Shown: one piece after another, positions 2,863 through 63,072 of the stretch
Layout of the letters: the number at the start of each line of letters is the position of its first letter
How positions within the stretch are numbered: the stretch's first letter is position 1
The notes under the pieces: generated by a model
The model's input: the letters and a program-made list of their open reading frames with translations, nothing else
Database searches by the model: none
What the model was told of the DNA's origin: nothing
Origin: Rhodospira trueperi
Lineage (GTDB): Bacteria > Pseudomonadota > Alphaproteobacteria > Rhodospirillales > Rhodospirillaceae
Reading direction: 5' to 3'
Assembly (NCBI RefSeq): GCF_900101965.1
Contig: NZ_FNAP01000016.1
Span: 1-63,072, forward strand
DNA: 63,072 nt
Made by a program: the position numbers and the translations under genes

Positions 2863-2965
2863 GGCCGGCAACATAGCGGATCACATCGCATCGCACCAGA
2901 ATTGTTGCACGCGGATCGGGCGTCTATATGAGGCGGTTGTCCGTCGATCCGGAGCGCGCGCCGCC

Positions 2966-3805
2966 ATGCCCGAACTGCCCGAGGTGGAGACCGTCCGCCG
3001 CGGCCTGGAACCGCTGTTGCTGGGCCGTCGGCTGGCGCGGGTCGTGGTGCGCCAGCCTCTGTTGCGCTGGCCGGTGCCGGCCGGATTCGCCCGTGCCCTG
3101 ACCGGCCGGCGGGTCGAGGCGCTGGACCGGCGCGGCAAGTACCTGCTGATCCGGCTGGACGACGGCCGCGCGGTGATCGGGCACCTGGGCATGTCGGGCT
3201 CGCTGGCGACACGTCCCACGGCAGCGGCGCCCGACCCCCACGATCACGTCCTCTTCGAGACCGACGCGGGCGCGCGCCTGACCTTTCATGATCCGCGCCG
3301 ATTCGGCGCCCTGTTGCTCGCCGACGCGGCCGGGCTGGCGTCGCACCCACTGCTCGCCCACCTGGGGCCGGAGCCGCTGGACGAGGCCTTCGACGGCCCG
3401 GCGCTGGCGGCGCGGCTGGCCGGCAAGCGGTGTTCCATCAAGGCGGCGCTGCTCGACCAGCGCGTGGTCGCCGGTCTCGGCAATATCTATGTCAGCGAAA
3501 GCCTGTTCCGCGCCGGCCTGTCGCCGCGCCGGCTGGCGGGAACGGTGACGGGCGCGCGCGCCGTCCGGCTGGCCTCCGCGATCAAGGCCGTGCTTCTGGA
3601 GGCGCTGGAGTCGGGCGGCTCGACGCTGCGCGACCACCGCCGCGCCGATGGTACCCTAGGCTATTTTCAGCACGCCTTCGCCGTCTATGACCGCGAGGGA
3701 CTGCCCTGTCCCGGCTGCGATTGCGACCTTGCCCGCACCGGCGGCATTCGGCGCTTGGTGCAGAATGGCCGCTCGACATTTTTCTGTGCGGCGCGGCAAC
3801 GCTGA
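2966..3805 (+). CDS. mutM: Formamidopyrimidine-DNA glycosylase (MutM/Fpg)
   Basis: Bifunctional glycosylase/AP lyase that removes oxidised purines such as 8-oxoguanine. The start at 2966 gives the invariant N-terminal MPELPEVE, where Pro2 is the catalytic nucleophile and Glu3 is also catalytic. The conserved lysine sits in RRGKYLLI near residue 60, and the protein is 279 residues. The C-terminal zinc finger is odd: it reads CPGC, then 20 or so residues, then FFCAARQR, so the fourth zinc cysteine normally in the CxxCQ end is arginine. An extra cysteine two residues after the first pair (CPGCDC) might compensate. The following gene starts 17 bases downstream. Confidence 0.93.
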
Positions 3806-3821
3806 TGTAGCGTGCGGGGCC

Positions 3822-4202
3822 ATGACACGGGGACCGAAACACGCGGTTGGCGCGCTTCTGGCGCTTGCGCTCCTGGCGGCCATGCCCTCGCCCGGCGTGG
3901 CCGACGAGGCGGGCGTCTTCGTGACCGGGACCGAGGATCTGCCGTTGATGCCCGGGCTTCGCGAGGTGCCGGATCGCGGCGTGGTGTTCGAGACCGGCCA
4001 GGGCCGTATCGTGGAGGCGTATGCCGTCGGATTCCTGTCGGCGGATGCGGTTGGGGGGTTTTACCGCGAAAGCCTGGAACAGTTGGGCTGGAGGCGAGTC
4101 GGCGACCTCACCTTTCATCGGGAGGGAGAGGTCCTGACGCTGACGTTTCCGTCCGCGCCCGATCCCCTGACGGTGCGGTTCCGGATCGCGCCGGGCCCGT
4201 GA
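3822..4202 (+). CDS. Small exported protein of unknown function
   Basis: A 126-residue protein with a clear Sec signal peptide: MTRGPK, then a hydrophobic core LLALALLAAMP, then cleavage near VADEA. The mature part holds two recognisable segments, GRIVEAYAVG and FYRESLEQLGWRRVGDLTFHREG, the latter typical of small periplasmic proteins that follow mutM in alphaproteobacteria. I do not recognise a characterised family. The in-frame ATG at 3687 would overlap mutM by 119 bases, so the start at 3822 is preferred. It lies between mutM and the enoyl-CoA hydratase on the same strand and could be co-transcribed. Confidence 0.75.
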   Translation: MTRGPKHAVGALLALALLAAMPSPGVADEAGVFVTGTEDLPLMPGLREVPDRGVVFETGQGRIVEAYAVGFLSADAVGGFYRESLEQLGWRRVGDLTFHREGEVLTLTFPSAPDPLTVRFRIAPGP

Positions 4203-4262
4203 GGATTCAGAGTCATTTTCCCGCGCACCGGACGGGCGCGGACCAGTGCGGAGCGTTGAGAT

Positions 4263-5039
4263 ATGGCCTACGAGAACATTCTGGTCGAGACCCACGGCAA
4301 GGTGGGCGTCATTGTCCTGAACCGGCCCAAGGCCCTGAACGCCCTGTCGAAGGGCCTGACCCGGGAACTGGCGCAGGCGCTGGACAGCTTCGAGGCCAAC
4401 GACGACATCGGCGCCATTGTCCTGACCGGCAGCGAGAAGGCCTTCGCCGCCGGCGCCGACATCAAGGAGATGGCCTCCAAGTCCTACATGGACGTCTACA
4501 TGGAGGACTTCATCACCGTGGACTGGGAGCGGGCCTCCACCTGCCGCAAGCCGGTGATCGCGGCCGTCTCCGGCTATGCCCTGGGGGGCGGCTGCGAGTT
4601 GGCCATGATGTGCGACTTCATTCTGGCGGCCGAGAACGCCAAGTTCGGCCAGCCGGAAATCACCATCGGCACCATGCCCGGCGCCGGCGGTTCCCAGCGT
4701 CTGACCCGTTTCGTCGGGAAGTCCAAGGCCATGGAGATGTGCCTGACCGGCCGCATGATGGACGCCGCCGAGGCCGAGCGTGCGGGCCTCGTCAGCCGCG
4801 TCGTGCCGGTCGATGACCTCAAGGACGAGGCCATCAAGACGGCCTCTAAGATCGCCGACCTGTCGCTGCCGGTGGTGATGATGACCAAGGAGGCGGTCAA
4901 CCGCGCCTTCGAGACCACGCTGGGCGAGGGTCTGCGGTTCGAGCGCCGCCTGTTCCACTCCACCTTCGCCACCGAGGACCAGAAGGAAGGCATGGCCGCC
5001 TTCGTCGAGAAGCGCCAGCCGGACTTCAAGAACAAGTAG
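4263..5039 (+). CDS. Enoyl-CoA hydratase
   Basis: A 258-residue crotonase-fold protein that hydrates 2-trans-enoyl-CoA in fatty acid or short-chain acyl-CoA breakdown. The oxyanion-hole segment [11 protein letters not shown] and both catalytic glutamates are present, one in [11 protein letters not shown] and one in [15 protein letters not shown]. The C-terminus ends with the usual [12 protein letters not shown]. Length is standard for single-function EchA/PaaF-type enzymes. The cytosolic enzyme could serve fatty acid oxidation or crotonyl-CoA steps; the sequence alone does not say which. Confidence 0.93.
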
Positions 5040-5163
5040 GGCGGCGCGGTCGGGGTCGGTGCGACAGGGGCGCTCCCCCTCGACAGGCGGGCGCGACGTG
5101 CCTACATGGCCGGGGACTGTTCGTGCGGACCCTGCGCGGTTCCGCCAGCCGGGACGCCATGCC

Positions 5164-5529
5164 ATGACCGAAGCCGAGACCCAGACCGCCCCCCCGCCGG
5201 CCGGCACGCTGTCCGTCAGCGAGGCCTGCGCCGCCCGCGTGCGCACCCTGATCGCCGGAGAGCCGGCGCCAGAGCCCATGCTGCGCGTGATCGTCGAGGG
5301 CGGGGGATGCTCCGGCTTTCAGTACCGCTTCGACCTGGACCGGGTGGTGGCCGACGACGACCGGGTGTTCGCGGCCCACGGCATCCGCGTGGTGATCGAT
5401 GAGGCCTCTCTGGAGATTCTGGACGGCTCGGAGATCGACTATGTCGAGGATCTGATGGCCGCCGCCTTCACCATCCGCAACCCGAACGCCACCGCGACCT
5501 GCGGGTGTGGAACGTCGTTCGCGGTGTAA
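5164..5529 (+). CDS. erpA: Iron-sulfur cluster insertion protein ErpA
   Basis: A-type Fe-S carrier of 121 residues that passes clusters to apo-proteins. The three conserved cysteines are in GGGCSGFQY and in the C-terminal CGCGTSF, the standard arrangement. The LxVSEACAARVRTL opening and the IDEASLEILDGSEIDYVEDL segment match ErpA rather than SufA. The proline-rich first 18 residues are specific to this protein. An upstream in-frame start at 5059 only adds unlikely sequence. A nested palindromic repeat begins right after the stop codon. Confidence 0.88.
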   Translation: MTEAETQTAPPPAGTLSVSEACAARVRTLIAGEPAPEPMLRVIVEGGGCSGFQYRFDLDRVVADDDRVFAAHGIRVVIDEASLEILDGSEIDYVEDLMAAAFTIRNPNATATCGCGTSFAV

Positions 5530-5705
5530 TCCGGAACCCGGATGATCGGCTCCCGTGCGTTGGCCGCCAACCCGTAGGTTGGGGTGAGCGAAGCGAACCC
5601 CAACGGATCCGGCCACCAGAACCGAATGGTGTTGGGGTTCGCTTCGCTCACCCCAACCTACGGGCCAATTCGCCGGATCGCGAACGAGTCACCCGGTCTC
5701 CGGAT
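5529..5705. repeat. Palindromic repeat element R1 with terminal inverted repeats
   Basis: Between erpA and rplS lies a structured element. Its centre is a perfect 34-bp inverted repeat, arms 5571-5604 and 5631-5664 around a 26-base loop, and each arm is itself near-palindromic around TTCGCTTCGCTCA. The ends form a second, imperfect inverted repeat: 5529-5549 (ATCCGGAACCCGGATGATCG) against 5681-5705 (CGAACGAGT..CCGGAT). The same terminal sequences flank element R2 at 26299-26445, whose centre is different. The convergent position between two stop codons suits a bidirectional terminator role. Confidence 0.85.
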
Positions 5706-5754
5706 AAGACCTTAGGCCGGAACCGAAATCCCGGCCGGTGGTCCCGGTGGCGTG

Positions 5755-6189
5755 CTACTCACCCTTGGTGCTGGCGGCGTCCTTGCGGGCCTTGGAGACC
5801 TCGCGCTCGTGATGCAGCGCCTTCTGCGTCGCGGTGCCGTCCTCGACGATGCGCGCCGAGCGACCGCGACGGCCCCGCAGATAGTACAGCTTGGCGCGGC
5901 GGACCTTGCCTCGGCGCACCACCTCGATGCGGTCGATGGTCGGAGCGTACAGCGGGAAGACGCGCTCCACACCCTCGCCGAACGAGAGCTTGCGCACCGT
6001 GAAGGAGCTGTTGAAGCCGGCGTTGCGGCGCGCGATGACCACGCCCTCGTAAACCTGGATACGGCTGCGCTGGCCCTCGACCACCTTCAGGTGGACCTTG
6101 ACGGTATCGCCCGGGGAGAACTCCGGCACGCCGCGCTGCTCCAGCGCCTTTTCGATTTGCTCTTTCTCAAGCTGTTCGATGAGGTTCAT
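5755..6189 (-). CDS. rplS: 50S ribosomal protein L19
   Basis: A 144-residue ribosomal protein at the 30S-50S interface. It begins [14 protein letters not shown] and carries the family block [14 protein letters not shown], followed by [20 protein letters not shown] and the basic [14 protein letters not shown]. The tail after residue 120 is a lysine-rich extension. It is the last gene of the ffh-rpsP-rimM-trmD-rplS series, but about 400 bases of hairpin-rich DNA separate it from trmD, so it may have its own promoter or processing site. Confidence 0.96.
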
Positions 6190-6596
6190 GGTCTGTCGTC
6201 CTTTCGCATCAATCTTGGTTGGTTTTCATTGGCGTTTTTGTTTTCATCGCCGCAACGATCCTGACGGATCACGCGGCAGTTCACATTTCAGTCGCCGCCG
6301 CGATCCGTCAGGATCGCGCGGCTTCGGGCCTTCGGCCCGCCCGGGCGGTCGCCCGGGATTGGCACACCACATCCGACGCGACCGCGTCGGCGCGGCGAAG
6401 CCGCGGAGCCCCGCGAGGTCCGAAGGACCGAGCTGGGGCGATAAAGAACAAAGATTCGCTCGGGTTTGGCACACTCCATTCAGCGCAGACGTGCCCAGTT
6501 AACACCTCTTCTTCGTAGGGCGGGTTCGCGCCGAAGGCGCAACCCGCCATGTGTGGTGCCGTCTGTGGCGGATTGCCGCTGCGCGGCGACTCCACC
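6190..6596. repeat. Hairpin-rich trmD-rplS intergenic region
   Basis: This 407-base gap holds no convincing gene. Six short stem-loops follow each other at 6299-6318, 6325-6339, 6340-6357, 6373-6390, 6391-6405 and 6417-6429; all stems are 5-8 perfect base pairs with loops of 2-4 bases. The segment around 6250-6270 repeats 6294-6320 in part (GATCCTGACGGATC against GATCCGTCAGGATC). A separate imperfect inverted repeat spans 6515-6600, starting GTAGGGCGGGTT and ending CCACCCTAC, and abuts the trmD stop codon. Confidence 0.75.
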
Positions 6597-7322
6597 CTAC
6601 TCCTTCTCCACATACCGTGCCCACAGATCGGGGCGCCGGTTCCGGGTGATCGCCTCGGCCTGTTCGCGCCGCCACTGGGCGACGCGGCCGTGGTGACCGG
6701 AAACCAGCACCTCGGGCACGGTCCGTCCGTCCCACACCTGCGGCCGCGTGTAGTGCGGATACTCCAGCAGGCCGGTCTCGAAACTCTCCTCCGCCAGCGA
6801 TTCGGCCTTGCCCGTCACCCCGGGCAGCAGCCGCACCACCGCGTCCAGCATCACCAGCGCCGCCGGCTCGCCCCCGGAGAGGACGACATCGCCGACACTG
6901 ACCTCCTCCATGGACCACGCGTCAATCGCACGTTGGTCCAGGCCCTCGTAGCGACCGCACACCAGGGTCACCCCCGGCCCGGCGGCCAGCTCCCGCACCA
7001 GCGCCTGATCCAGCACCCGCCCGCGCGGGGACGGGTAGATCAGCCGCCGCTCCGGCGTGTGGTTCGCGGCCACCGCGTCGCTCACCACGTCGGGGCGCAT
7101 CACCATGCCGGCGCCACCGCCGAACGGCGTGTCATCCACGGTGCGGTGACGGTCCCGGGCATAGCCCCGAATGTCCACCGCGTCCAGCGTCCACACCCCC
7201 TCGGCCAGCGCCTTGCCGGCCAGCGACAGCCCCAGCGGACCCGGAAACATCTCCGGGAACAGCGTCAGCACCACCGCCGACCAGGGACGCGCGGCACCGG
7301 TCTCAGCCCCGGTCTCAGCCAT
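6597..7322 (-). CDS. trmD: tRNA (guanine37-N1)-methyltransferase
   Basis: SPOUT-class methyltransferase that makes m1G37 in tRNAs reading codons that start with C. The 241-residue protein has the N-terminal [14 protein letters not shown], the [13 protein letters not shown] block, the knot segment [16 protein letters not shown] and [22 protein letters not shown]. The start at 7322 (MAETGAE) is inside the end of rimM and overlaps it by 8 bases, implying translational coupling; longer in-frame starts add only arginine-rich junk. Confidence 0.95.
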
Positions 7323-7860
7323 TGCCGTTGCCCTCGTCCGCGCCCGCGTCCTCCAGCAGCCCCGGCAGATCGGCCACCACCGCCCGGCCCGCCGCCACAT
7401 CCACCACCGGCACGGCGGCCCGGGTGAACGGGATCATCAGCGGCTTTCCGCCCGCCGCCGTCGGCGTCACGTCCAGCACATCGCCGGCCCCGAAATCGTG
7501 CACCGCGCGCACCGTGCCCAGCGCCGTGCCGTCCTGTCGCTCCACCCTCAGGCCGATCAGGTCGGCGTGGTAGTATTCCTCGTCCTCCCCGGCCGGCGGC
7601 AGCGCGTCGCGCGGGACATACAGCCGCAGGCCCTTCAACGCCTCGGCGGCGGTGCGGTCATCGACGCCGTCGAGGCGGCACAGCACCACGCCCTTGGCGT
7701 CGCCGACCACCGACAGGCCCCACGACCGCGCCCCGTCCTCGGTCCAGACGGGGCCGTAAGCGCCCACATCGGCGGGGTCGGCCGTGAAGCTCTTGACCCG
7801 CACCGCGCCGCGCACCCCGTGCACGCCGACCACCACGCCCAGGCAGACCCGTTCGGCCAT
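7315..7860 (-). CDS. rimM: Ribosome maturation factor RimM
   Basis: A 181-residue 16S rRNA-processing factor that binds S19 and the 30S head. The N-terminal RimM domain opens with [20 protein letters not shown]; the PRC-barrel half contains [12 protein letters not shown] and later [17 protein letters not shown]. It lies 21 bases downstream of rpsP and overlaps trmD, forming a tight operon. Confidence 0.94.
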
Positions 7861-7881
7861 GGTCCCGGCTCCCAGGGGAGA

Positions 7882-8277
7882 TTACGTAGCGTCGCCGTCC
7901 GCGGGTGCGGCGTCCGCCTCGGCGGCGGCAGCGGCGGCCTCGGCCTTCTCCTGAGCCTCGCGCAGACGCTCCTGGGCTTTGGCCTTGGGCTGGTTCTTCT
8001 TGGTCTGCTCCGGATGCGGGCGGGCGTCCATCAGGCCGGCCTCGGCGAGGAACTTGGCCACGCGGTCGGTCGGCTGCGCGCCCTGGGCCATCCAGTGGCG
8101 GATGCGCTCCTCCTTCAGGCGGACGCGCTCCTCGTGCTCGCGCGGCAGCAAGGGATCGTAGGTGCCCAGCTTCTCGATGAAGCGGCCGTCGCGCGGCGAC
8201 CGCGCATCGGCCAGCACCACACGGTAGAACGGCCGCTTCTTGGCGCCACCACGGGACAGACGGATCTTGAGGGACAT
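7882..8277 (-). CDS. rpsP: 30S ribosomal protein S16
   Basis: A 131-residue ribosomal protein starting [20 protein letters not shown], the standard S16 opening, with [20 protein letters not shown] following. The core ends near residue 85. The rest is an alanine- and lysine-rich tail (about 45 residues) common in alphaproteobacterial S16. It is 43 bases downstream of ffh and is followed closely by rimM. Confidence 0.96.
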
Positions 8278-8320
8278 GCTTGCTCTCTCCTGGTGTTTCT
8301 TGTTCTCGGTGTTCAGGTGT

Positions 8321-9958
8321 CTATTTCTTGCGGCCCTTGGGCCGCTGCATCATCAGGTTGGTGGGGAGCCCGGATCGGCCGGGACCACCGGCGCCCAGCC
8401 CAGGGGGCAAGGCCGGGCCACCCGCGCCCCCGGCGCCCAGGCCGGGCGGCAGTTTGCCATCGGCCAGTTCGGGCGGCAGCTCGCCCCGCTGCGCCATGTC
8501 GGCCAGCATTTTCGGGTCCATGTCGCCCATGTCGGGGGCGCCACCGCCGCCGCCGAACATGCCGCCCATCTGTTCGGCCAAGCCCTTCATGCCGCCCATC
8601 TTTTTGACCTTCTTCATCATCTGGGCCATCTGCTGATGCTGTTTCAGCAGCTTGTTGACCTCCTGCACCGTGGTGCCAGCGCCGGCGGCGATGCGCTTCT
8701 TGCGCGAGGCCTTGATGATGTCGGGATAGCGCCGCTCGCGCCGGGTCATGGACAGGATGATGGCTTCCTGGCGCTTGATCATCGAATCGTCGATGTTGGC
8801 GGCCTCGATCTGCTTTTTCATCTTGCCGACGCCGGGCATCAGGCCGAGCAAGCCCTTGACGTCGCCCATACGGCGGACCTGTCGGAACTGGGAGAGCATG
8901 TCCTCCAGGTCGAACTTGCCCTTCTCCATGCGCCGGGCGAGCTTTTCGGCCTCGTCCACCTGAATCGAGCGGGCCGCCTTTTCCACCAGACTGACGACAT
9001 CGCCCATGCCCAGGATGCGCCCGGCGACGCGGTCGGCCTGGAATTCCTCCAGGGCGTCCATCTTCTCGCCGGTGCCCATCAGCTTGATGGGCCGGCCGGT
9101 GATGGCGCGCATGGACAAGGCCGCGCCGCCCCGGGAGTCGCCGTCCACACGGGTCAGAACGATGCCGGAGATGCCGACCTTCTCGTTGAACTCGGTGGCC
9201 ACGACGACGGCGTCCTGGCCGATCATGGCGTCGGTGACGAGCAGGGTCTCGGCCGGGTTGGTGATCTTGCGGACCTCGGCCACCTCCTCCATCAACTCCT
9301 CGTCGATGGCCAACCGGCCGGCGGTGTCGAGGATGACCACGTCGTAGCCGCCCTTGCGGCCCTCATCCAGGGCCCGCTTGGCGATCTGCACGGGCTTCTG
9401 GCCCATGATGATGGGCAGGGTGTCGACGCCGGTCTGTTCGCCGAGCACGGCAAGCTGATGCTGGGCCGCCGGGCGCTGCACGTCCAGCGAGGCCATCAGC
9501 ACCTTCTTGCGCTGCATGGTCTTCAGGCGCAGGCCGATCTTGGCCGACGTGGTGGTCTTGCCGGAGCCCTGCAGGCCGACCATCAGGATCGGGACCGGCG
9601 GCGTGGTGTTGAGGTCCAGGGCCTCGGTCACCCGGTCGCGCTTGCGGGCGCTCCGCTCGTCCTCATCCTCGTCGTCCGCCGCGCCGCCGACCTCGCCGGC
9701 CAGCATTTCCACCAGGGCGTCGTGAACGATCTTGATGACCATCTGGCCCGGGGTAACGGACTTCAGCACCTCCTGACCGACAGCGCGCGCGCGCACCTTG
9801 GCGACGAAGTCCTTGACCACCGGCAGGGCAACGTCGGCCTCCAGGAGGGCGACGCGCACCTCCCGCATGGCCTCCTTCACGTCGTCCTCGGAGATGCTGC
9901 CCTTGCCGCGCAGTTTCTCCAGAACGTCGCCGAGACGACCCGACAGCCCTTCGAACAT
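8321..9958 (-). CDS. ffh: Signal recognition particle protein Ffh
   Basis: The SRP54 GTPase subunit that binds signal peptides and 4.5S RNA during co-translational membrane targeting. Of about 545 residues, the N domain is followed by the G domain with P-loop [37 protein letters not shown] and [11 protein letters not shown]. The M domain holds methionine-rich helices ([15 protein letters not shown]) and a glycine/proline-rich tail. An acidic insertion (DDEDEDERS) sits before the P-loop. I start at MFEGL; two codons upstream is another ATG (9964). Its RNA partner is encoded at 48467-48562. Confidence 0.96.
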
Positions 9959-54936: not shown

Positions 54937-55001
54937 TCGGGTTTGCGGAGGCACCGACTGGGGTGTTCGGACGGCACGATCACCCAACCCGGATGTCCAA
55001 A

Positions 55002-55044
55002 GCAAATCCCGAGCGATCCTGGACGGATCCCGACGACGATTTGC
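55002..55044. repeat. 43-bp palindromic dispersed repeat, copy 2
   Basis: Second copy of the repeat at 30157-30199, same length, 6 mismatches. It starts GCAAATCCCGAGCGATCC and ends GACGATTTGC. It lies between nikL and the tRNA-Gln fragment. Confidence 0.72.
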
Positions 55045-55275
55045 TTCAGTCACAAATGGCTGCGGCGACACGGCCTGTCGGGTCGGTGGTCGTCCCCCGA
55101 AGACTCGGTCGGAGGAGGACCAGCCGCAGCGTCGAGACCCTCTATCGCCGCGATATCGGCCGAACCGCCCGCCTTGCCGAGAGCCCATGGCCCGGCTGGA
55201 GAACGCGATGGGACCGGATCCTGCAAGCTGACCGGCCCGGTTCCAAAAGAGGGCGGAAAAACTCTATTGGATCAA

Positions 55276-55323
55276 TGGCTGGGGGACCTGGATTCGAACC
55301 AGGACTGACGGAGTCAGAGTCCC
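55276..55323 (-). mobile_element. tRNA-Gln 3' fragment, candidate attL
   Basis: The minus strand carries the 3' part of a tRNA-Gln(CTG): anticodon arm GGACTCTGACTCCG, the T-arm with GGTTCGAATCC, and the acceptor end CCCCCAGCCA including the encoded CCA. The expected D-arm and 5' acceptor strand are absent; the sequence upstream of the anticodon arm is unrelated. A partial 3' tRNA copy is what site-specific integration leaves at the far end from the intact tRNA. Its orientation predicts an element to the right and the complete tRNA-Gln at the element's right end, outside this window. Confidence 0.8.
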
Positions 55324-55496
55324 AGGAAGACAATTGATTTTGTTTGGCTTTTCCTCGAACCACGAGGAAGGCCGCCCGTGCAAAAACAATGGGTTACAGG
55401 CCGTTTTCAAACGGCCTCAGGTCACCAGGACGCGATAGCGCCGCGCTGGGATTTATCCGTTGCCCGGTCCATCCATCAGGGCCTGGACGGTGCCCC

Positions 55497-55700
55497 ATGA
55501 CGGACCCAGCCCGTTTCGCCGACATGGCCGATCCCGAGCGGAACCCTCAGTTCCGGCGTCGCTGGATCGAGCCGGGCACCGACGGGACGGCCGGTCCCGC
55601 GCCCCGCGAGGTATGCGCCCCGGCCGACGATCCCCTGGACCATCTGGGCACCCTGATCGCAACCGACTTCCGCGCCGCCCGGGCCGGGGGGTGTCGATGA
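55497..55700 (+). CDS. Small element protein, unknown
   Basis: A 67-residue protein, first gene after the tRNA fragment. No family recognised. It contains DPERNPQFRRRWIEPGTDGT and is otherwise polar. Its stop overlaps the start of the next gene by ATGA, and the next two genes are coupled in the same way, so it is likely a real member of the operon. Confidence 0.6.
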   Translation: MTDPARFADMADPERNPQFRRRWIEPGTDGTAGPAPREVCAPADDPLDHLGTLIATDFRAARAGGCR

Positions 55701-56299
55701 TCGACCTGATTGGCGAGTTCCTGGACATGGCCGCCCAGGTCACACCACAGCATGACCTGGCGCTGGCGTCTCTCGGCGTGCCCATCAACTGGTTGCGGGG
55801 CTGGCCGAACACGACCCGATACGGTGTCACCCGGGCGACGCTGCCCCGTTCTGGTGCCTTCTGGGAGCCGCATCCCGATGGCGAGCCCGTTTGTGTTCTG
55901 CCGGATCAGATTCCACTCGACGGCGACGATCCGCTGTTCGCCATCGCCACCTTCGAGCCGTCCGATCTGATCGCGTTTCGTCCGAGAGACCCCTCCCGCT
56001 GGTGGCGTCGCGTCGGCGACGCGGTATTGATCAACCGCGAGGCCGTCGAGCGGGCCAAGTATCTGGACGAACCCTTGCCGGTCCACCCGGACCCCCTGGC
56101 CTGGATGGTGGCGCGCGGCGCCGGTGTGGTGATTGTGGATTGGGGCCGGCGGCCGTTGCGCCTGCACCTGTCCGGCCCGCCCTCGCTGGTGTGCGCGACC
56201 TATGAACTGGCGGACCGCCTGGATCGTCGGTTTAAGGCCGAACGTCGGGACGACACGCCGCGCCTCACCTTCATGCAAGAGGAGGTCGCGGCGGTATGA
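55697..56299 (+). CDS. Element protein of unknown function
   Basis: A 200-residue protein translated with ATGA overlaps to both neighbours. I do not recognise a family. It contains an internal stretch rich in Trp and Arg (RPRDPSRWWRRVGDA) and the segment PHDPLAWMVARGAG-like VHPDPLAWMVARGAGVVIVD. Position directly before a primase/helicase suggests a replication-linked or host-takeover role, which is inference. Confidence 0.7.
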   Translation: MIDLIGEFLDMAAQVTPQHDLALASLGVPINWLRGWPNTTRYGVTRATLPRSGAFWEPHPDGEPVCVLPDQIPLDGDDPLFAIATFEPSDLIAFRPRDPSRWWRRVGDAVLINREAVERAKYLDEPLPVHPDPLAWMVARGAGVVIVDWGRRPLRLHLSGPPSLVCATYELADRLDRRFKAERRDDTPRLTFMQEEVAAV

Positions 56300-57681
56300 G
56301 CGAGCCCATTGACTTCGAAAAGGCCAAGAAGCAGCGCCGCAAGGCCAAGTCTCCCGACGATGACGGACCGTTGCACGAGATGAATGAGCGGTTCGGCCTG
56401 GTCAAGATCGGTGCCGAAAACCGCGTGGTCGAGTTCACGACCGGGGCCGATGGCAAGCCGACGACCGCGTTCCGAACGACCCGGGCCTTCCGGGAAGAAT
56501 TCGGCAACCGCTTCATCCCGCGTGGTGACGCCTACAAGCCGATAGGCGACGTGTGGCTGAAGTGGTCCGGCCGGCGGACCTTCCAGGGCATCACCTTCGC
56601 GCCCCAGGGGGCGCCGGACGGCTGGCTGAACCTGTGGCAAGGCTGGTCGGTCGCGCCCGGATTGGGGACCTATGCGACCTTCCGTGACCACCTGTTGACG
56701 AACGCGTGCGACGGGGACGAAGACCTTTTCCGCTGGGTCTTCGCCTGGTTTGCCCAGATGGTGCAGGAACCGGAGAAGAAGCCGGGGACGGCGCTTGTCC
56801 TTCGGGGCGGGATGGGCACGGGAAAGACCATCGTCGGCGAAATCTTCGGCTCGCTGTTCGCCCATCACTATGTGCTGGTGGACCAACCCAAGCACCTGAC
56901 CGGCCCCATCAACAGCCACATGGAATCCTGCCTCCTGTTGCAGGCGGACGAAGGGTTCTGGGCTGGCGACAAAGGCGCGGAGGGCCGCTTGCGCGGGCTT
57001 ATCACGTCCGCGCGCCAGCTGATCGAACGGAAGAACGTCGATCCGATCCCGCTGCCCAATCTCACCCGTGTGCTGATCACGTCCAACCACGATTGGGTCG
57101 TGCCCGCCGGCCGTGATGAACGCCGGTTCGCGGTCCTGGACGTGGCGGACTATGCCAAACAGAACGCCGAATACTTCGGGGCCATCATGGATGAGATGGA
57201 CAACCAGGGCGGCCGGGCCGCGCTGCTTGCCGACCTGTTGGCCTTCGACCTGTCCACAGTGAACTTGCGCGCCATCCCGCAGACGGCGGCCCTGGCGGAG
57301 CAAAAGGCCGCCAGCATGCCGCCGATTCATCGTTGGTGGTACGACCGACTTATGGATGGCGTGCCTGTCCGCGCCCTGGACGGCTACGGGGAGCAATGGG
57401 GCTGGGGACCGTATGTGGCCCCGATCCCGAAGGCCGTGCTGTTCGAGGATTATGTGCGCGCGTCGGAGCACACTGGGGACCGTCGGCGATCCAGCGAAAC
57501 GCAGCTGGGGACGGAGCTCCGGCGCCTTGTGCCGACACTGGAGGTCATCCGGACCAATGCCGGGGGTGTTCGGAAATGGTGTTGGGTGCTCCCGACGCTG
57601 GAGGAATGCCGCGATCATTTTGCGAGCATGTATGGCCTCGGCAACCCCTGGCACCCAGAAGATGAGGAGTTTGGAGGGTAA
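56296..57681 (+). CDS. Phage-type primase/helicase (DUF5906, SF3-like)
   Basis: A 461-residue ATPase with Walker A RGGMGTGKTIVGEIFG near residue 175 and downstream features typical of phage/plasmid SF3 helicases: QADEGFWAGDKGAEGRLRGL (Walker B region), ERKNVDPIPLPNLTRVLITSN with a sensor asparagine, and DERRFAVLDVAD. It matches the primase-helicase family proteins of phages and satellites; no separate primase catalytic domain is visible. The start overlaps the previous gene by 4 bases. Directly downstream lie the twelve GTCCAACC repeats. Confidence 0.85.
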   Translation: MSEPIDFEKAKKQRRKAKSPDDDGPLHEMNERFGLVKIGAENRVVEFTTGADGKPTTAFRTTRAFREEFGNRFIPRGDAYKPIGDVWLKWSGRRTFQGITFAPQGAPDGWLNLWQGWSVAPGLGTYATFRDHLLTNACDGDEDLFRWVFAWFAQMVQEPEKKPGTALVLRGGMGTGKTIVGEIFGSLFAHHYVLVDQPKHLTGPINSHMESCLLLQADEGFWAGDKGAEGRLRGLITSARQLIERKNVDPIPLPNLTRVLITSNHDWVVPAGRDERRFAVLDVADYAKQNAEYFGAIMDEMDNQGGRAALLADLLAFDLSTVNLRAIPQTAALAEQKAASMPPIHRWWYDRLMDGVPVRALDGYGEQWGWGPYVAPIPKAVLFEDYVRASEHTGDRRRSSETQLGTELRRLVPTLEVIRTNAGGVRKWCWVLPTLEECRDHFASMYGLGNPWHPEDEEFGG

Positions 57682-57682
57682 G

Positions 57683-57933
57683 GTCCAACCTTGGTCTGTC
57701 AGGGTCCAACCTCGGTCCAACCTATGCACTCGGGAAAACGCAATGTTTTCAACGGGGAGTCCAACCGGTCCAACCAGTCCAACCTTTTCTTCGGGTTTCG
57801 CGCGCGTGTGTGCGCGGGCGTGCGCGCAAGACCCCCTTTATAGGTTGGACTGGTTGGACTGGTTGGACCAAGCAAGGCGTTCTGCGGGTTTCGGACGGTC
57901 CAACCTTGGTCAGGAGGTTGGACTCGGTTGGAC
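57683..57933. repeat. Cluster of twelve GTCCAACC repeats
   Basis: The 8-mer GTCCAACC (or its complement GGTTGGAC) occurs twelve times. Forward copies start at 57683, 57704, 57715, 57759, 57768, 57777 and 57898; reverse copies start at 57843, 57852, 57861, 57916 and 57926. The triplets at 57759/68/77 and 57843/52/61 have 9-base spacing and face each other around a 58-base loop that holds a CGCGC-type palindrome (about 57802-57829). The 15-mer GGTCCAACCTTGGTC occurs at both ends (57682, 57897). It sits between the helicase and the small terminase gene. Confidence 0.9.
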
Positions 57934-58078
57934 CAAGGTCGGACCTAAAGGACTTCCCAATGAGATTCGGGTCCTTCCCAAAAAAGCGAGATGCGGGCAT
58001 TTCGAACCGAGGCACTTCGCTAGCGTCAGGGCAAGAATTAAGCTAAACTCAGCACTGAACATGACAGGGCTATACACT

Positions 58079-58672
58079 ATGCAGAACCAAGACGAGCCCC
58101 ACATTGACCTTGACGGAGCCGTCATCACCAAAGCCGAGTTCGCCCGCCGTCTTGGGGTTTCGCGTGGCCGTGTCTCCCAACTGGTCCAGGCTGGCATGCC
58201 GACGCGCGAAGGCGGCAAGCTGGACGAAGCAGAGGCCCGGGCGTGGTACGCCGCCAATATCGACCCGTCGCGCCGCCGGGGATGCGCCGTGGTGAGCGAG
58301 GGCGCCCTCAAGGTCCTGGCGGCGGAGATGCCCCCCAGCGGGCTCCGAAACGGGCCGCACGGGGCCGCCCCCAGCGACCTGACCACCTGGCGCACCGAAC
58401 ACGAGCGCCTGAAGGCCGAAGAGCGGGCCATGCGACTGGCGCGGGAACGGGGGGAGACCCTACCCAAGGCGGACGTGGCGCGCCTGTTCGGCGACTTGGG
58501 GCGACACCATCGCGAGACCTGGTCACAGTTCCCCACCCGGGTGGCGCCGCTGCTGGCGGCCGAATTCGGCGTGTCCGAACCCGCCATGCTTCACGCCCTC
58601 GAAACCCATGTGCGGAACCAGCTGTCCGCCATGGTCGAGGCCCCGCCGGAGGTGTTCGCCGATGCTGGATGA
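58079..58672 (+). CDS. Phage terminase small subunit, Nu1-like
   Basis: A 197-residue protein with an N-terminal winged helix-turn-helix (ITKAEFARRLGVSRGRVSQLVQAGMP) of the Nu1/DNA-packaging type. The middle is a charged helical region (ERLKAEERAMRLARERGE) and the C-terminal part has FPTRVAPLLAAEFGVSEPAMLH. It precedes, and overlaps by 11 bases, the large terminase gene, the usual terS-terL order. ATG at 58079 is preferred; another lies at 58061. The nearby repeats are candidate binding sites for its HTH. Confidence 0.8.
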   Translation: MQNQDEPHIDLDGAVITKAEFARRLGVSRGRVSQLVQAGMPTREGGKLDEAEARAWYAANIDPSRRRGCAVVSEGALKVLAAEMPPSGLRNGPHGAAPSDLTTWRTEHERLKAEERAMRLARERGETLPKADVARLFGDLGRHHRETWSQFPTRVAPLLAAEFGVSEPAMLHALETHVRNQLSAMVEAPPEVFADAG

Positions 58673-60638
58673 TGCCGCCGCCTGGTGCTGGGATGCCTAC
58701 CGGCGGCAGGCCGCGCCGCCGCCGCTGCTGACCGTCTCGGAATGGGCGGACACATACCGCCGCCTGACCAGCAAGAGCGCGGCGGAGCCCGGTCCCTGGC
58801 GCACCGACCGCACGCCTTACCTGCGGGCCATCATGGACGCCCTGAGCCCGCAGGCGCCCTGGCAGCGCGTTGTGTTCGTGAAGGGGGCACAGCTTGGGGG
58901 CACCGAGGCCGGGAACAACTTCCTGGCCTATCTCATCCACTGGCACCCCGGCCCGATCATGGCCGTCCAGCCGACCGTCGAGGGCGCCAAGCGGTGGTCG
59001 CGCCAACGCCTGGATGACCTGGTCGAGGCGCCGCCGCTGGCGGGCCTGGTCAAGGATCCCCGGTCCCGGGACTCCGGCAACACAACCCTGCTGAAGGAGT
59101 TCCCCGGCGGGGTGCTGGTCGTGACCGGCGGCAACAGCGCGGTGGGGCTGCGGTCCATGCCGGTGCGGTTCCTGTTCCTGGACGAGGTGGACGCCTACCC
59201 CATCGACGCCGACGGGGAAGGCGATCCCATCGACCTGGCGGTGCAGCGCACCGCGACCTTCGGGCACCGACGCAAGGTGTTCCTGGTCAGCACGCCGACG
59301 ATCGAGGGCCACAGTCGGATCGAGCGGGCCTATCAGGAATCGGACCAACGGCGGTTCTGGGTCCCATGCCCCCACTGCGGCGAATTCCAGGTGCTGACCT
59401 GGGATCAGATGCGCTGGACCGAGGAGGCGCCGGAGACGGCGTTCTACGAGTGCGCGCACAACGGGTGCGTGATCGTCAACGCGGACAAGGCGACCATGCT
59501 CCCCCGGGGCGAATGGCGGGCGGAGGCGGATGGCGACGGCGAGACCGCCGGCTTCCATATCAGCTCGCTCTATTCGCCCGTCGGCTGGCTGTCCTGGGCG
59601 GACCTGGCGCGCCAGCACGAGAAGGCGAAGGACTCGCCCGCGCGCATGCAGGTGTTCGTCAATACCAAGCTCGGGGAGACCTGGCGGGACCAGGGCGAGG
59701 CCCCCGCCTGGGAACACCTGTGGGAGCGGTGCGGCGGCTATACGGCCGGCGAAGTCCCCGAAGAGGTCGCCTTGCTGACGGCCGGAGCCGATGTCCAGCC
59801 CGACCGGATTGAGGTCGAGGTGGTTGGATGGGGCGAAGGGTTTCGGTCCTGGTCCATCAGCTACCACGTTCTGGACGGATCGCCCGAAGGCGAAGCGGTC
59901 TGGCAGGCCCTGGACCAGGTCGTTCGGCACACCTGGCGCCGCCAGGGCGGGGGCGATGCCCTGACCGTCCAGCGGATCGCCGTTGATTCGGGCTTCCTGA
60001 CCCCGGCCGTGTATCGCTGGGTCGGCAGGACCGGGCAGAAGCTCGCCATGGCCATCAAGGGCCGCGCCAACATGATGACCGCCCTGGGCACCGCAACCCG
60101 CACCGAGGTGACCGGCGCCGGCCGGCGCGCCCGCACGCGCGGCGTGCGCGTCTGGACGGTTGGCGTGGACCTGTTGAAGGGGGAGCTGTATGGCCGCCTT
60201 CGCCTGACGCGCGGCGACGATGGCAGGGTGCCGCCCGGCTATTGCCACTTCCCGGAGGGCTACGAGGCCGAGTACTTCAAGCAGTTGACGGCGGAAGAGC
60301 TGGTCACCGGCACCAACCGGAAGGGCTACGAAACGCGGGAGTGGCGCAAGACCCGTCCGCGCAACGAGGCCCTGGACTGCCGCGTCTATGCTACGGCGGC
60401 GCTGCTGGCGTTGGGGGCGGCCCGCTGGGGACCGACCGAATGGGAAGCTCGGCGCCGGGCCAACGCGGGCGGGCTGCCCCTTTCTGCCCCCATGCCGGCG
60501 CCGCATGTGACGGCCGGCAATGATGAGACGGCGCCAGGGGGCAGCGCTGCCGACACCCCATCCGCGCACGGCGTGCGCGGTCCCTCCCCGCGGCCCGCGT
60601 CCAGGCCCGCGGTCATCCGGTCCAGCTGGTTGGGGTGA
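58662..60638 (+). CDS. Phage terminase large subunit, GpA family
   Basis: A complete 658-residue packaging motor of the lambda GpA type. The ATPase half has the deviant Walker A in VVFVKGAQLGGTEAGNNF and Walker B in VRFLFLDEVDAYP, with FLVSTPTIEGHSRIER as coupling motif and a CxxC zinc pair (CPHCGEFQVLTWDQM). The nuclease half carries LTAGADVQPDRIEVEVVGWG, IAVDSGFLTPAVYRW and the final RPRNEALDCRVYA. Ending is proline-rich. No portal or head protease follows, which is unusual for a GpA gene. Confidence 0.93.
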   Translation: MLDDAAAWCWDAYRRQAAPPPLLTVSEWADTYRRLTSKSAAEPGPWRTDRTPYLRAIMDALSPQAPWQRVVFVKGAQLGGTEAGNNFLAYLIHWHPGPIMAVQPTVEGAKRWSRQRLDDLVEAPPLAGLVKDPRSRDSGNTTLLKEFPGGVLVVTGGNSAVGLRSMPVRFLFLDEVDAYPIDADGEGDPIDLAVQRTATFGHRRKVFLVSTPTIEGHSRIERAYQESDQRRFWVPCPHCGEFQVLTWDQMRWTEEAPETAFYECAHNGCVIVNADKATMLPRGEWRAEADGDGETAGFHISSLYSPVGWLSWADLARQHEKAKDSPARMQVFVNTKLGETWRDQGEAPAWEHLWERCGGYTAGEVPEEVALLTAGADVQPDRIEVEVVGWGEGFRSWSISYHVLDGSPEGEAVWQALDQVVRHTWRRQGGGDALTVQRIAVDSGFLTPAVYRWVGRTGQKLAMAIKGRANMMTALGTATRTEVTGAGRRARTRGVRVWTVGVDLLKGELYGRLRLTRGDDGRVPPGYCHFPEGYEAEYFKQLTAEELVTGTNRKGYETREWRKTRPRNEALDCRVYATAALLALGAARWGPTEWEARRRANAGGLPLSAPMPAPHVTAGNDETAPGGSAADTPSAHGVRGPSPRPASRPAVIRSSWLG

Positions 60639-60730
60639 AACAGGCATTGGCTTGCCTGAAAAAGGTACATTCGCACCTAACTGCTTGAAAACGAGCCAGA
60701 ATAAGTTCCTTTGAAGTCAATGGGTTAAGG

Positions 60731-60832: not shown

Positions 60833-61672
60833 CTACTTTTTGTGCTTGGACATATCGGTGCGAACTCGATGGTTGCTTGGAATGAAGAGCCAATGCCGAT
60901 ATGGGTGAGTCCAATGATCTGACGCCTCTACGGTGCCCGTATTTGCGCCAATGTTAAAGTTTGGATATATTGACCGGATCCTGCGGCTAATTTCCTTAAA
61001 CACCTCTTCCTTTGCGCGGGTTCTCTTGCCGCGTATCCTTTGGCCTTCCGGTTTAATTTTGTGCAAATCGTTAAGCCTAAAATTCATTGACCCAAGTATC
61101 ACATCAAGGCACTGAAGAACGACGTGTTCGTGCGAGACGACATCAGCAATATTTTCACTTTTGACGATGATCTGCGCGCGCCGGAAATACGGGTTTTTTT
61201 CAAGGCCGCATATGTAAGACTTAAACTGAGCGACCTTCTCTTTCGTATCTGGCAATCGATCAAAATACACGCGAATTGATACTGGTTGCCCATCGAAATT
61301 ACAATGCTGTAGGCCGAAAGCATGCTTAACAAACTGATAGTATAGTAAAAAGTACTCGTTCTCTAACTGATCTGCAGTAAGCCCGACGGGCTCACGTAGG
61401 TTTTGGGTGAACATTATGCGGACCTTCACGGACCCCGCATCAATAAGATCGAAAAATGCGTTCATAAGCTCTATGTACTTATCCCTATAATTTTCCGTAA
61501 TCTTAACCCATTTTACTTCTCCATGAAGATTTAGATCTGTTTTTTTATCGTTGAGTGTTTGGCGAACAAAATCTATATTTTCGCCACCCACAAGCGCTCC
61601 GCCGTAAAAATTAGAAAAATGCACCCCTTTCTTTGCTGATTCGTCACAGTAAATCACAAGCTCTCTGGTCAT
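60833..61672 (-). CDS. DUF3800 domain protein, low-GC cargo gene
   Basis: A 279-residue protein with the DUF3800 opening ELVIYCDESAKKG and FSNFYGGALVGGEN (conserved acidic residues of an RNase H-like fold), FDRLPDTKEKVAQFKSYI and the late ASDHWTHPYRHWLF. DUF3800 genes are frequent in mobile elements and defence neighbourhoods; function unproven. Base composition (about 43-45% G+C) is far below the rest of the window, so it was acquired separately. A TTG-started extension reaches 61693; ATG at 61672 is preferred. Confidence 0.85.
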   Translation of the reverse strand: MTRELVIYCDESAKKGVHFSNFYGGALVGGENIDFVRQTLNDKKTDLNLHGEVKWVKITENYRDKYIELMNAFFDLIDAGSVKVRIMFTQNLREPVGLTADQLENEYFLLYYQFVKHAFGLQHCNFDGQPVSIRVYFDRLPDTKEKVAQFKSYICGLEKNPYFRRAQIIVKSENIADVVSHEHVVLQCLDVILGSMNFRLNDLHKIKPEGQRIRGKRTRAKEEVFKEISRRIRSIYPNFNIGANTGTVEASDHWTHPYRHWLFIPSNHRVRTDMSKHKK

Positions 61673-62096
61673 GTGATCAAATCCAAATTCCAAAGTGATG
61701 GCACATCTGGACCGCGTCCACTCTATTTTTGGCTCCTGCCCCTTGCAACAACTGACAAGCGGAGCGGACCAATGCTACTGAGCCCGGATCACAACCCTTG
61801 AAACGGCGCGGCGGCAAGGCCGACCATATGATGCCTGTGGGCGGGCCACAGTACAACGGTGCGCAAGCCCTTGTTGACGACAAGGGACCGGCGCCCGCCC
61901 GAATCAATCGCTCTGGAATGTCAAGGACCTGTGTAATGTTTCAGAAGTTGGGCCGGGCAAGCGGATCACTTTCGCCATACCTGGCGAACGTGCGGGGGCG
62001 GCCGTCCGTGGCCACAGTGCGCCCGCCAGAAATCGTTGAAGATCAAGCTCCCCGAAACGGGGGAGCAAAGAAATCAAAGGCTTAGGCCCTTCTACG
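61673..62096. other. Region between DUF3800 gene and the transposase, no gene seen
   Basis: About 420 bases without an acceptable gene on either strand. Composition rises back to the genome average through it. A promoter for the DUF3800 gene should lie near 61700-61800 on the minus strand, but no strong hexamer pair is evident. Confidence 0.5.
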
Positions 62097-63072
62097 GTAA
62101 CCGGGGCAGAAGTGCGGGCGGTGGCTGCGTCGCGACTCACATTTGGTTGCGCGAACTCGCGGTTCGTGATTCGCTGCGGGCATGGTCAAGCCGCCGTTCG
62201 ACATTGATGCCCTGTATCCGGCGACGCTGAAGCCGTTGACGCTGGGCCTGCTGGAAGAGAACGCCCGGCTGGTGTCGGAGAACGGGGCGTTGCGCGACGA
62301 GATCGCGCGGCTGAAGGGTCTGAAGGGCAAGCCGGACATCAAGCCGCCCTTGAAGCCGTCTGGCATGGACAAGGCAACGGACAAACGGCCCCGGCGCGAG
62401 GGGAAGCGGCGGCGCGGGCCGAAAAAGCCGTCGGGCGTGGTCGAGGAGCGGCGGATCGCGGTCGATGGTGTCCCGCCCGGCTCGCGGTTCAAGGGCACCC
62501 AGCCGTTCACGGTCCAGGAGCTCAGGATCGAGGCCCGCACGGTGTGCTATCACCGTGAACGGTGGATCACTCCGGACGGCGTGACGATGCTGGCGCCGCT
62601 GCCCGATGGGGTCACCGATCACTTCGGTCCCGCGCTCAAGCGCTTCATCCTCGCCCAATACCACCAGGGCCAGACGACGGTGCCCCGCCTGGTCGAGATG
62701 CTGCAAGGGCTGGGGGTGGCGATTTCCCAGCGGCAGGTGGTGCGCATCCTCATCGCGTCAAACGACCAGTTCGTCACCGAGGCCCGGGACGTTCTGCGGG
62801 CGGGCCTGACCCACGGACGGTGGATTTCGGTGGACGATACCGGCGCCCGTCACCAGGGCAGAAACGGCGTCTGCACCCAGATCGGCAACGATGCGTTCAC
62901 TGTTTTCGCCACCACGGTTTCCAAGAGCCGGCTCAATTTCCTCGAGCTTCTGCGGGCCGGGCACGGCGACTATGTGCTGAACGATCAGGCCTTCGCCGCC
63001 ATGCGCCGGCGCGGCCTCGCCGGTTCCGTCATCGCCCGACTGCAGGCCCACCCGGACCGGTTTTTCGCCGAT
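62097..63072 (+). mobile_element. IS66-like insertion sequence, left part only
   Basis: The DDE transposase gene starts 85 bases inside a possible left end at GTAACCGGGGCAGAAG (62097); IS66-family ends commonly begin GTAA. Lack of tnpA and tnpB before the transposase would fit the single-gene branch of that family. The right end and any 8-bp target duplication lie outside the window, so the boundaries are provisional. Confidence 0.5.
62182..63072 (+). CDS. IS66-like transposase, partial at right edge
   Basis: An open frame from ATG at 62182 to the end of the window, 297 codons with no stop, so its tail is cut. The N-terminus has a leucine-zipper-like helix (LTLGLLEENARLVSENGALR) and then a basic, proline-rich hinge. 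The catalytic region begins WISVDDTGARHQGRNGVCTQ, carrying the first DDE aspartate, and KSRLNFLELLRAGHGDYVLN with the second. The family call is from resemblance; related DDE families are possible. Confidence 0.72.
   Translation, partial: MVKPPFDIDALYPATLKPLTLGLLEENARLVSENGALRDEIARLKGLKGKPDIKPPLKPSGMDKATDKRPRREGKRRRGPKKPSGVVEERRIAVDGVPPGSRFKGTQPFTVQELRIEARTVCYHRERWITPDGVTMLAPLPDGVTDHFGPALKRFILAQYHQGQTTVPRLVEMLQGLGVAISQRQVVRILIASNDQFVTEARDVLRAGLTHGRWISVDDTGARHQGRNGVCTQIGNDAFTVFATTVSKSRLNFLELLRAGHGDYVLNDQAFAAMRRRGLAGSVIARLQAHPDRFFAD

What the first reader, a model, noticed from the sequence alone, without database searches (positions are those of the whole stretch)
55276..60640. Candidate phage satellite (or stripped prophage) at tRNA-Gln
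A tRNA-Gln 3' fragment in the correct orientation for attL is followed by two small ATGA-coupled genes, an SF3-type helicase, a repeat cluster, a Nu1-like TerS and a complete GpA terminase. Normally a portal gene follows GpA at once; here non-coding DNA and a low-GC gene follow. A mini-element with its own replication and packaging functions but no capsid genes resembles a satellite that uses helper capsids. No integrase is visible; it may lie at the right end beyond the IS.
Basis: partly seen in the sequence, partly recalled or inferred. Interest (0 to 1): 0.78.

Follow-up and report, generated by a model that had tools for sequence, protein, structure and literature searches.

The report
Tail-less satellite with its own capsid
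The end of this window is the left half of a small virus-like parasite of bacteriophages that makes its own head but has no tail genes, so it must probably borrow a tail from another phage, and similar elements sit at many different tRNA genes across one large class of bacteria.

Summary
The contig ends inside an IS66. The 52 bp with the tRNA-Gln fragment (55271-55322) recur exactly in an intact tRNA-Gln on contig C10. C10 begins with the other end of that IS66, and both sides carry the same 8-bp target duplication. Without the IS the element is 15,537 bp. Beyond the IS lie a MerR-type regulator, a lambda-family portal, a fused protease-capsid, a small head-tail adaptor, a decoration protein and an integrase, but no tail gene was recognised.

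Two close relatives (L040, L041; genes under purifying selection) and a distant one (Pararhodospirillum oryzae, L042) keep this layout. Head genes followed at once by an integrase, nearly always beside an intact tRNA, recur across Alphaproteobacteria. It works like a capsid-forming PICI, with other head and packaging families. No helper or particle was shown. The integrase is frame-switched, so this copy may be immobile.

The parts
55271..55322 (.). attL: displaced 3' end of tRNA-Gln(CTG) in 52 bp identical to C10:8815-8866 (attR, intact tRNA-Gln)
55497..55700 (+). small ORF (67 aa) coupled ATGA to the next; homologue in P. oryzae element L042 (38%)
   Evidence: no PHROG hit
55697..56299 (+). 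conserved 200-aa protein of unknown function, beside the helicase also in L041 (63%) and L042 (48%)
   Evidence: no Pfam hit above cut-off, no PHROG hit; model poor, pLDDT 41
56296..57681 (+). SF3-type helicase / primase C-terminal part (DUF5906)
   Evidence: dN/dS 0.14-0.16
57682..57934 (.). candidate replication origin: 12 GGTTGGAC iterons in two orientations (function inferred)
   Evidence: similar layout in L040 and L041, different iteron (GGTGGTCC) in L042
57968..58029 (.). candidate cos region: CGGGTCCTTCCC and CTAGCGTCAG blocks conserved upstream of terS (function inferred)
   Evidence: alignment of W, L040, L041, L042
58079..58672 (+). TerS, Nu1-like (phrog_57)
58662..60638 (+). TerL, GpA type (PF05876 + PF20454), 658 aa from the MLDD start
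   Evidence: dN/dS 0.08-0.12
60833..61693 (-). low-GC cargo gene, DUF3800; hits a candidate phage-defence family (PADLOC PDC-M04A, 6.3e-18)
62089..62096 (.). 8-bp target duplication CTTCTACG of the IS66; second copy at C10:96-103
62097..63072 (+). IS66 left end and transposase (PF03050), cut by the contig end; inserted in the cargo region

Best explanation
A 15.5-kb integrated phage satellite of the capsid-forming, tail-stealing kind. SHOWN by sequence: it sits in the 3' end of tRNA-Gln between 52-bp repeats, was split by an IS66, and encodes a helicase beside an iteron-like cluster, TerS and GpA-type TerL, a lambda-family portal, a fused protease-capsid, a small head-tail adaptor, a decoration protein, a repressor-type HTH, a MerR-type regulator and a frame-switched integrase, but no recognisable tail or lysis gene. 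Relatives with the same plan are bounded and widespread. INFERRED: after a helper phage infects, repression is lifted, the element excises and replicates from the iterons, packages itself through cos into its own heads, and the finished heads join helper tails. Cargo between TerL and portal may defend host or helper against other phages. This copy may no longer excise.
For: Link across the IS: 52-bp att, intact tRNA-Gln, IS66 target duplication shared by C4 and C10 and by no other of the eight ends read. Content. Same order of core genes in L040, L041 and L042; dN/dS 0.05-0.30 between this copy, L040 and L041. Integrase 0.3-1.6 kb after the capsid gene in 25 of 160 capsid-bearing loci. An intact tRNA starts -115 to +91 bp from the integrase end in 15 of 16 such genome loci, and a direct repeat from the tRNA end was found in 7 of 16. 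None of 19 PHROG families hit by 40 otherwise unlabelled ORFs of six bounded elements is named as tail; 10 of the 19 have no name. Defence-type hits among 68 cargo ORFs. Tree: 27 of 27 integrase-adjacent rows lie in one 101-row part, none in the 59-row part.
Against: The integrase is in two frames here and in L040, so mobility is doubtful. No helper, induction or particle data exist. No PF10145 (tape measure) or PF13550 (Phage-tail_3) was found in the host genome, so no resident helper is visible; these two families do not cover all tails. L041 carries one minor-tail-type gene (phrog_1924, 5.3e-69). A tape-measure-like gene occurs in nine capsid relatives and in L211; three of these (L075, L210, L211) are among the 25 loci above. 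So 'no tail gene' is not absolute in the wider group. The nearest capsid outside the trio (L143, 60%) is in such an element. In one search a major-head and a head-protease family hit one downstream ORF each, which I did not trace. The adaptor model matches phage adaptor chains only weakly (E 0.13 and 0.82). No empty site was found in the five same-genus genomes searched.
Confidence: 0.8

Rival explanations
1. Stripped or dying prophage: a tailed temperate phage that lost its tail and lysis genes by deletion, then took an IS and an integrase frameshift.
For: IS66 insertion, integrase frame switch, no tail gene recognised.
Against: The same tail-less order of core genes in two records at 79-90% identity and in P. 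oryzae at 33-56% for helicase, terminases, portal and capsid. All ten genes or gene parts measured against L040 or L041 are under purifying selection. Bounded elements at different tRNAs with the integrase straight after the head genes.
Confidence: 0.1
2. Functional family, dead copy: the lineage is a capsid-forming satellite, but this copy is a fixed remnant because its integrase no longer works.
For: Frame switch in the integrase here and in L040, while three more distant homologues (L069, L261, L274) are in one frame.
Against: The two halves keep dN/dS 0.05 and 0.09 between this copy and L040, odd for a gene dead before their split. A programmed frameshift is not excluded.
Confidence: 0.4
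3. A small autonomous virus that needs no helper tail: heads are released and enter in another way, or an unrecognised short tail is encoded.
For: Several ORFs (orf200, twA/twB, r145, r167) have no assigned function.
Against: A lambda-type portal and a head-tail adaptor point to tail joining. None of those ORFs lies in the head operon, and none hits a tail family.
Confidence: 0.08

Closest known systems
Capsid-forming PICI (cf-PICI; e.g. E. coli EcClEDL933)
   Same: About 14 kb on average; integrative; own terminases, portal, protease, capsid and connectors; no tail (passages of PMC10803314, PMC13230959 and PMC11389934; the original paper is recalled, not held).
   Different: Different families: GpA TerL (PF05876/PF20454), lambda portal (PF05136) and protease-capsid fusion (PF25209), against PF05065 capsids and an HNH gene in those passages. 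No AlpA or HNH hit in the element. Integrase at the capsid end. In Alphaproteobacteria, which are not in the host list given by PMC10803314.
Second island of the same genome, C14:371949-386912
   Same: 14.9 kb, between 26-bp repeats at tRNA-Asn, with its own head genes and no tail gene seen.
   Different: AlpA, PF04860 portal, PF05065 capsid, HNH, Terminase_4 and TerL PF03354, the order I recall for cf-PICIs. Of its Pfam families the window element shares only Phage_integrase and, below cut-off, Peptidase_S78.
Tailed phages with the same head set (Rhodobacter phage RcOceanus, Paracoccus phage Psul1)
   Same: TerS-TerL-portal-protease/capsid fusion order as annotated.
   Different: They continue into tail, tape-measure and fibre or tip genes and lysis, and are about 38 kb.
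P4-like, PICI and PICMI satellites
   Same: Small integrated satellites with their own replication module.
   Different: They use helper capsids; this element encodes its own (from the same passages and recalled knowledge).

Membership tests
cf-PICI | Integrated island of about 14 kb bounded by att repeats | tested here: met
   52-bp repeats, intact tRNA-Gln, 15,537 bp without IS
cf-PICI | Encodes its own portal, protease, capsid, connector, TerS and TerL | tested here: met
cf-PICI | No tail genes | tested here: met
   the likely ORFs of the element were scanned with PHROGs or Pfam; no tail hit. The L041 relative has one minor-tail-type gene
cf-PICI | Head and packaging set of the passages read: PF05065 capsid, HNH endonuclease | tested here: not met
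   PF05065 not among hits of the capsid at 0.05; the only PF05065 match in the genome is the C14 island; no HNH hit in the element
cf-PICI | Induction by a helper and use of helper tails | not testable with these tools
   no helper known; no PF10145 or PF13550 in the host genome
Defective prophage | Decaying genes, no conserved reduced architecture in relatives | tested here: not met
   dN/dS 0.05-0.30, recurring architecture; the integrase frame switch is a point for it
Classic PICI / P4-like | No capsid genes, redirects helper capsids | tested here: not met
   own portal and capsid
Lambda-like tailed phage | Tail module after the head module | tested here: not met
   a 107-aa ORF, integrase and attR follow the decoration gene

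The most novel reading that the evidence does not exclude
A class-wide alphaproteobacterial lineage of tail-stealing satellites that arose independently of the published cf-PICIs, built on lambda/Mu-type heads, hopping between tRNA genes, with a defence-cargo slot between TerL and portal. A sub-branch carries its own tape-measure protein but no tube, and would so re-measure or claim the stolen tail.
Probability: 0.35. Interest if true: 0.8.

Novelty: new variant of a known kind. Interest (0 to 1): 0.64.

Why it matters
If right, making one's own heads and borrowing tails is not peculiar to the cf-PICI head set but also evolved with another one, in Alphaproteobacteria. It gives bounded examples in named strains (Pararhodospirillum oryzae NBRC 107573, Aquabacter spiritensis DSM 9035, Pseudoroseomonas coralli M0104) in which helper identity, head-tail matching and cargo function can be tested directly. 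One genome with two unrelated tail-less head-making islands suggests that the habit may be common there.

Tried and rejected
(2) A GTA or resident tailed prophage as source or helper: PF13550 and PF10145 had no match in the genome, while they ring in 2 and 7 of 14 control genomes; the one PF05065 locus is another tail-less island. (3) My own first label 'tailed' for L143, L155 and L208: on inspection they hold a tape measure (and in L155 and L208 a neck-type gene) but no tube was found with my queries. Most other loci labelled T were not inspected one by one.

Led nowhere: an empty site in five same-genus genomes (flanks not found side by side); a model of orf200 (pLDDT 41); operator-like repeats beside the repressor gene are present here (GGTGACTTTATCACC, GGTGACAAAATCACC) but not in the matching regions of L040, L041 or L042. 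The distant helicase relatives with another terminase and portal (in L043-L058) were not followed for tails.

Rows dropped: A4 used 69 of 130 downstream ORFs, and only 25 of 79 families were shown. A5 used 66 of 90 cargo ORFs plus two from this element, and 25 of 247 PADLOC families were shown. The tree used the last 430 residues, left out L060, L216 and L137 and any row whose match ended before residue 590. In one search, L211 and the three primases scanned were left out. In one search the ORF before the integrase was scanned in a wrong frame; the right frame and the first integrase part were scanned.
Full report
1. What is in the window. The window is contig C4 of a 4.2-Mb genome and ends inside an IS66-like transposase at 63072. 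From 55271 rightwards it holds a tRNA-Gln 3' fragment, two small ATGA-coupled ORFs, an SF3-type helicase, a repeat cluster, TerS, GpA-type TerL and a low-GC DUF3800 gene.

2. The other half. The 52 bp at 55271-55322 are found once more, exactly, at C10:8815-8866, in an intact tRNA-Gln(CTG) at C10:8820-8893 minus. C10 starts with the opposite end of the same IS family. Of eight IS ends read, C4 and C10 share the 8-bp duplication CTTCTACG; C7-C45 (GATTTGCC) and C32-C17 (CCGCCTCT) form two other pairs; C3 and C27 had no partner (further partial copies listed were not read). So C4 and C10 are most simply joined through one IS66 copy. Without the IS and one duplication the element measures 15,537 bp, 65% GC.

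3. Gene content beyond the IS (contig C10, locus L009). Leftward: a 145-aa ORF (332-769), a 167-aa ORF (1087-1590) and an HTH protein (1583-1828; HTH_3, 2.5e-5). Rightward: two related ORFs (1962-2381, 2359-2775), a MerR-type protein (2904-3371; 1.4e-6), portal (3374-4834; Phage_portal_2, 6e-85), protease-capsid fusion (4969-6816; phrog_4523, 1.4e-144; PF25209, 2.3e-47), a 71-aa head-tail adaptor Ad1 (phrog_2545, 5.6e-18), decoration protein (7037-7387; PF09956, 1.9e-21), a 107-aa ORF (7539-7862, no firm hit) and a tyrosine integrase in two frames (7723-8376, phrog_1 1.5e-15; about 8373-8810, PF00589 1.1e-9), then attR. No ORF scanned in the element hit a tail family. The AlphaFold model of an Ad1 homologue (L060, 76% identical) is helix-hairpin-helix, pLDDT 77. 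Its first Foldseek match is a siphophage portal-adaptor chain (E 0.13), and a chain of lambda's portal-adaptor is at rank 7 (E 0.82): suggestive only. The likeness to lambda gpW is recalled knowledge of that fold.

4. Replication and packaging sites. Between helicase and TerS lie 12 GGTTGGAC units on the two strands (shuffle mean 0.03, maximum 1). L040 has 7 and L041 has 12 in a like arrangement. In L042 the repeated unit is GGTGGTCC (6 copies, both strands counted together) in the same place. This is what one expects of an iteron origin whose units change with their initiator; that is inference. Just before TerS, CGGGTCCTtCCc and CTAGCG.CAG are conserved in the four elements, a candidate cos site by position.

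5. Relatives with the same plan. Two IMG/VR records of 14.0 and 15.5 kb (L040, L041) share the core genes in order, at 79-90% identity for helicase, TerL, portal and capsid; no DUF3800 homologue was found in either, and the integrase of L041 is another one. The P. oryzae contig (L042, same contig as L216) has the same core order at 33-56% identity for helicase, terminases, portal and capsid, between 48-bp repeats at an intact tRNA-Thr, 11.4 kb. dN/dS of ten genes or gene parts among the window element, L040 and L041 is 0.05-0.30 (three of the ten compare only with L040).

6. How wide. The same with a 12-row alignment for the genome contigs gave 229 encoding stretches, 80 kept, nearly all Alphaproteobacteria by title. 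Of these 160 loci: 25 have an integrase 0.3-1.6 kb after the capsid gene, 40 have two or more hits to tail queries, 54 end too soon to tell and 41 are undecided. L060 is the record of L040. Of the 16 genome loci (14 genomes) among the 25, 15 have an intact tRNA starting -115 to +91 bp from the end of the integrase ORF (Phe, Leu, Arg, Ser, Lys, Glu, Thr); L207 has none. In 7 of 16 a 15-54-bp repeat of the tRNA end marks the left boundary, giving elements of 9.7-13.2 kb. In six of the bounded elements 40 unlabelled ORFs hit 19 PHROG families at 1e-4; none is named as tail, 10 have no name. The seventh, L211, has an ORF matching what I take for L144's tape measure, and no portal or TerL was found. 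L075 and L210, also among the 25, carry a tape-measure-like ORF. Among 69 ORFs after the capsid gene, tape-measure families hit one (L143) in the 25 of 79 families shown; a major-head and a head-protease family hit one ORF each and were not traced. A further group of mostly Rhodobacterales loci (44 tree rows, L160-L205) shows TerS-TerL-cargo-portal-capsid-Ad1, mostly followed by decoration, and then unrelated genes in the nine maps I read, with no tail hit by my queries; the 820-aa ORF before TerS in L177 is a primase. I did not prove their boundaries.

7. Tree. A quick tree of 160 capsid rows (midpoint root, 55 weak forks, several long branches) puts all 27 integrase-adjacent rows and all 44 of that group in a 101-row part that also holds 10 T rows. 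A 59-row part has 32 T and no integrase-adjacent row. The integrase-adjacent label needs at least 8 changes on well-supported branches. So the tail-less state is clustered but not one clean clade. The window copy, L040 and L041 group with L143, while L042, whose helicase is homologous, lies elsewhere, as if heads were exchanged.

8. Cargo. Between TerL and portal, 68 sampled ORFs give PADLOC hits: mad2 in 8, type II methyltransferases in up to 5, type IIG enzymes in up to 4 (one ORF can hit several models). The window's DUF3800 protein hits a candidate defence family, PDC-M04A, at 6.3e-18. Hotspots of antiviral genes in P2/P4 elements are the subject of PMC9122126 (search listing and start of abstract seen).

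9. The same genome has a second, unrelated island with head genes and no tail gene seen, on C14, laid out as I recall for cf-PICIs.

10. Literature. Passages of PMC10803314, PMC13230959 and PMC11389934 and the abstract of PMC10690885 were read. [quoted passage not shown] The founding paper and a large satellite census are not held. Ten searches listed no paper that, from titles and starts of abstracts, describes such elements in Alphaproteobacteria. That is a limited library, so 'not in print' is not claimed.

11. Verdict. It works like a cf-PICI. It is not filed as a member, because the head set of the passages read (PF05065 capsid, HNH) was tested and not met and helper use could not be tested. 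The mechanism (helper tails) is inferred from what is missing and from the analogy. The weakest points are the absence of a known helper and the frame-switched integrase of this copy.

Noticed in passing
G000:C14:371949-386912 (L238, L239): A second, unrelated tail-less island in the same genome: integrase, AlpA, primase-type genes, PF04860 portal, protease + PF05065 capsid, HNH, TerS, TerL, between 26-bp repeats at tRNA-Asn.
   Followed up: yes
L064, L075, L143, L153, L154, L155, L157, L208, L210: Elements with related capsids carry a tape-measure-like gene (in L155 and L208 also a neck-type gene) but no tail tube was found with my queries. A satellite bringing its own tape measure would be unusual.
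   Followed up: partly
L009:7723-8810 and L040:4-1088: The integrase changes reading frame at the same place in both copies although both halves are under strong purifying selection (dN/dS 0.05 and 0.09); three more distant homologues are in one frame. Programmed frameshift or old break is open.
   Followed up: partly
57682-57934; L042 12188-12528: The putative origin iterons keep their place but change their sequence (GGTTGGAC to GGTGGTCC) between relatives.
   Followed up: partly
55001-55061: A short intergenic repeat next to attL recurs about 50 times among listed matches in this genome, partly in tandem about 60 bp apart, and in same-genus genomes.
   Followed up: no
L160-L205: A large, mostly Rhodobacterales group of loci with terminase-cargo-portal-capsid and no tail hits; three small contigs (L162, L171, L191) have high coverage in their titles (316 to 775), baseline unknown.
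   Followed up: partly
L041:5015-5713: One minor-tail-type protein (phrog_1924, 5.3e-69) directly after TerL in an otherwise tail-less relative.
   Followed up: partly
L009:1832-1907: Two operator-like palindromes (GGTGACTTTATCACC, GGTGACAAAATCACC) between the HTH gene and the divergent genes; not found in the matching regions of L040, L041 or L042.
   Followed up: partly
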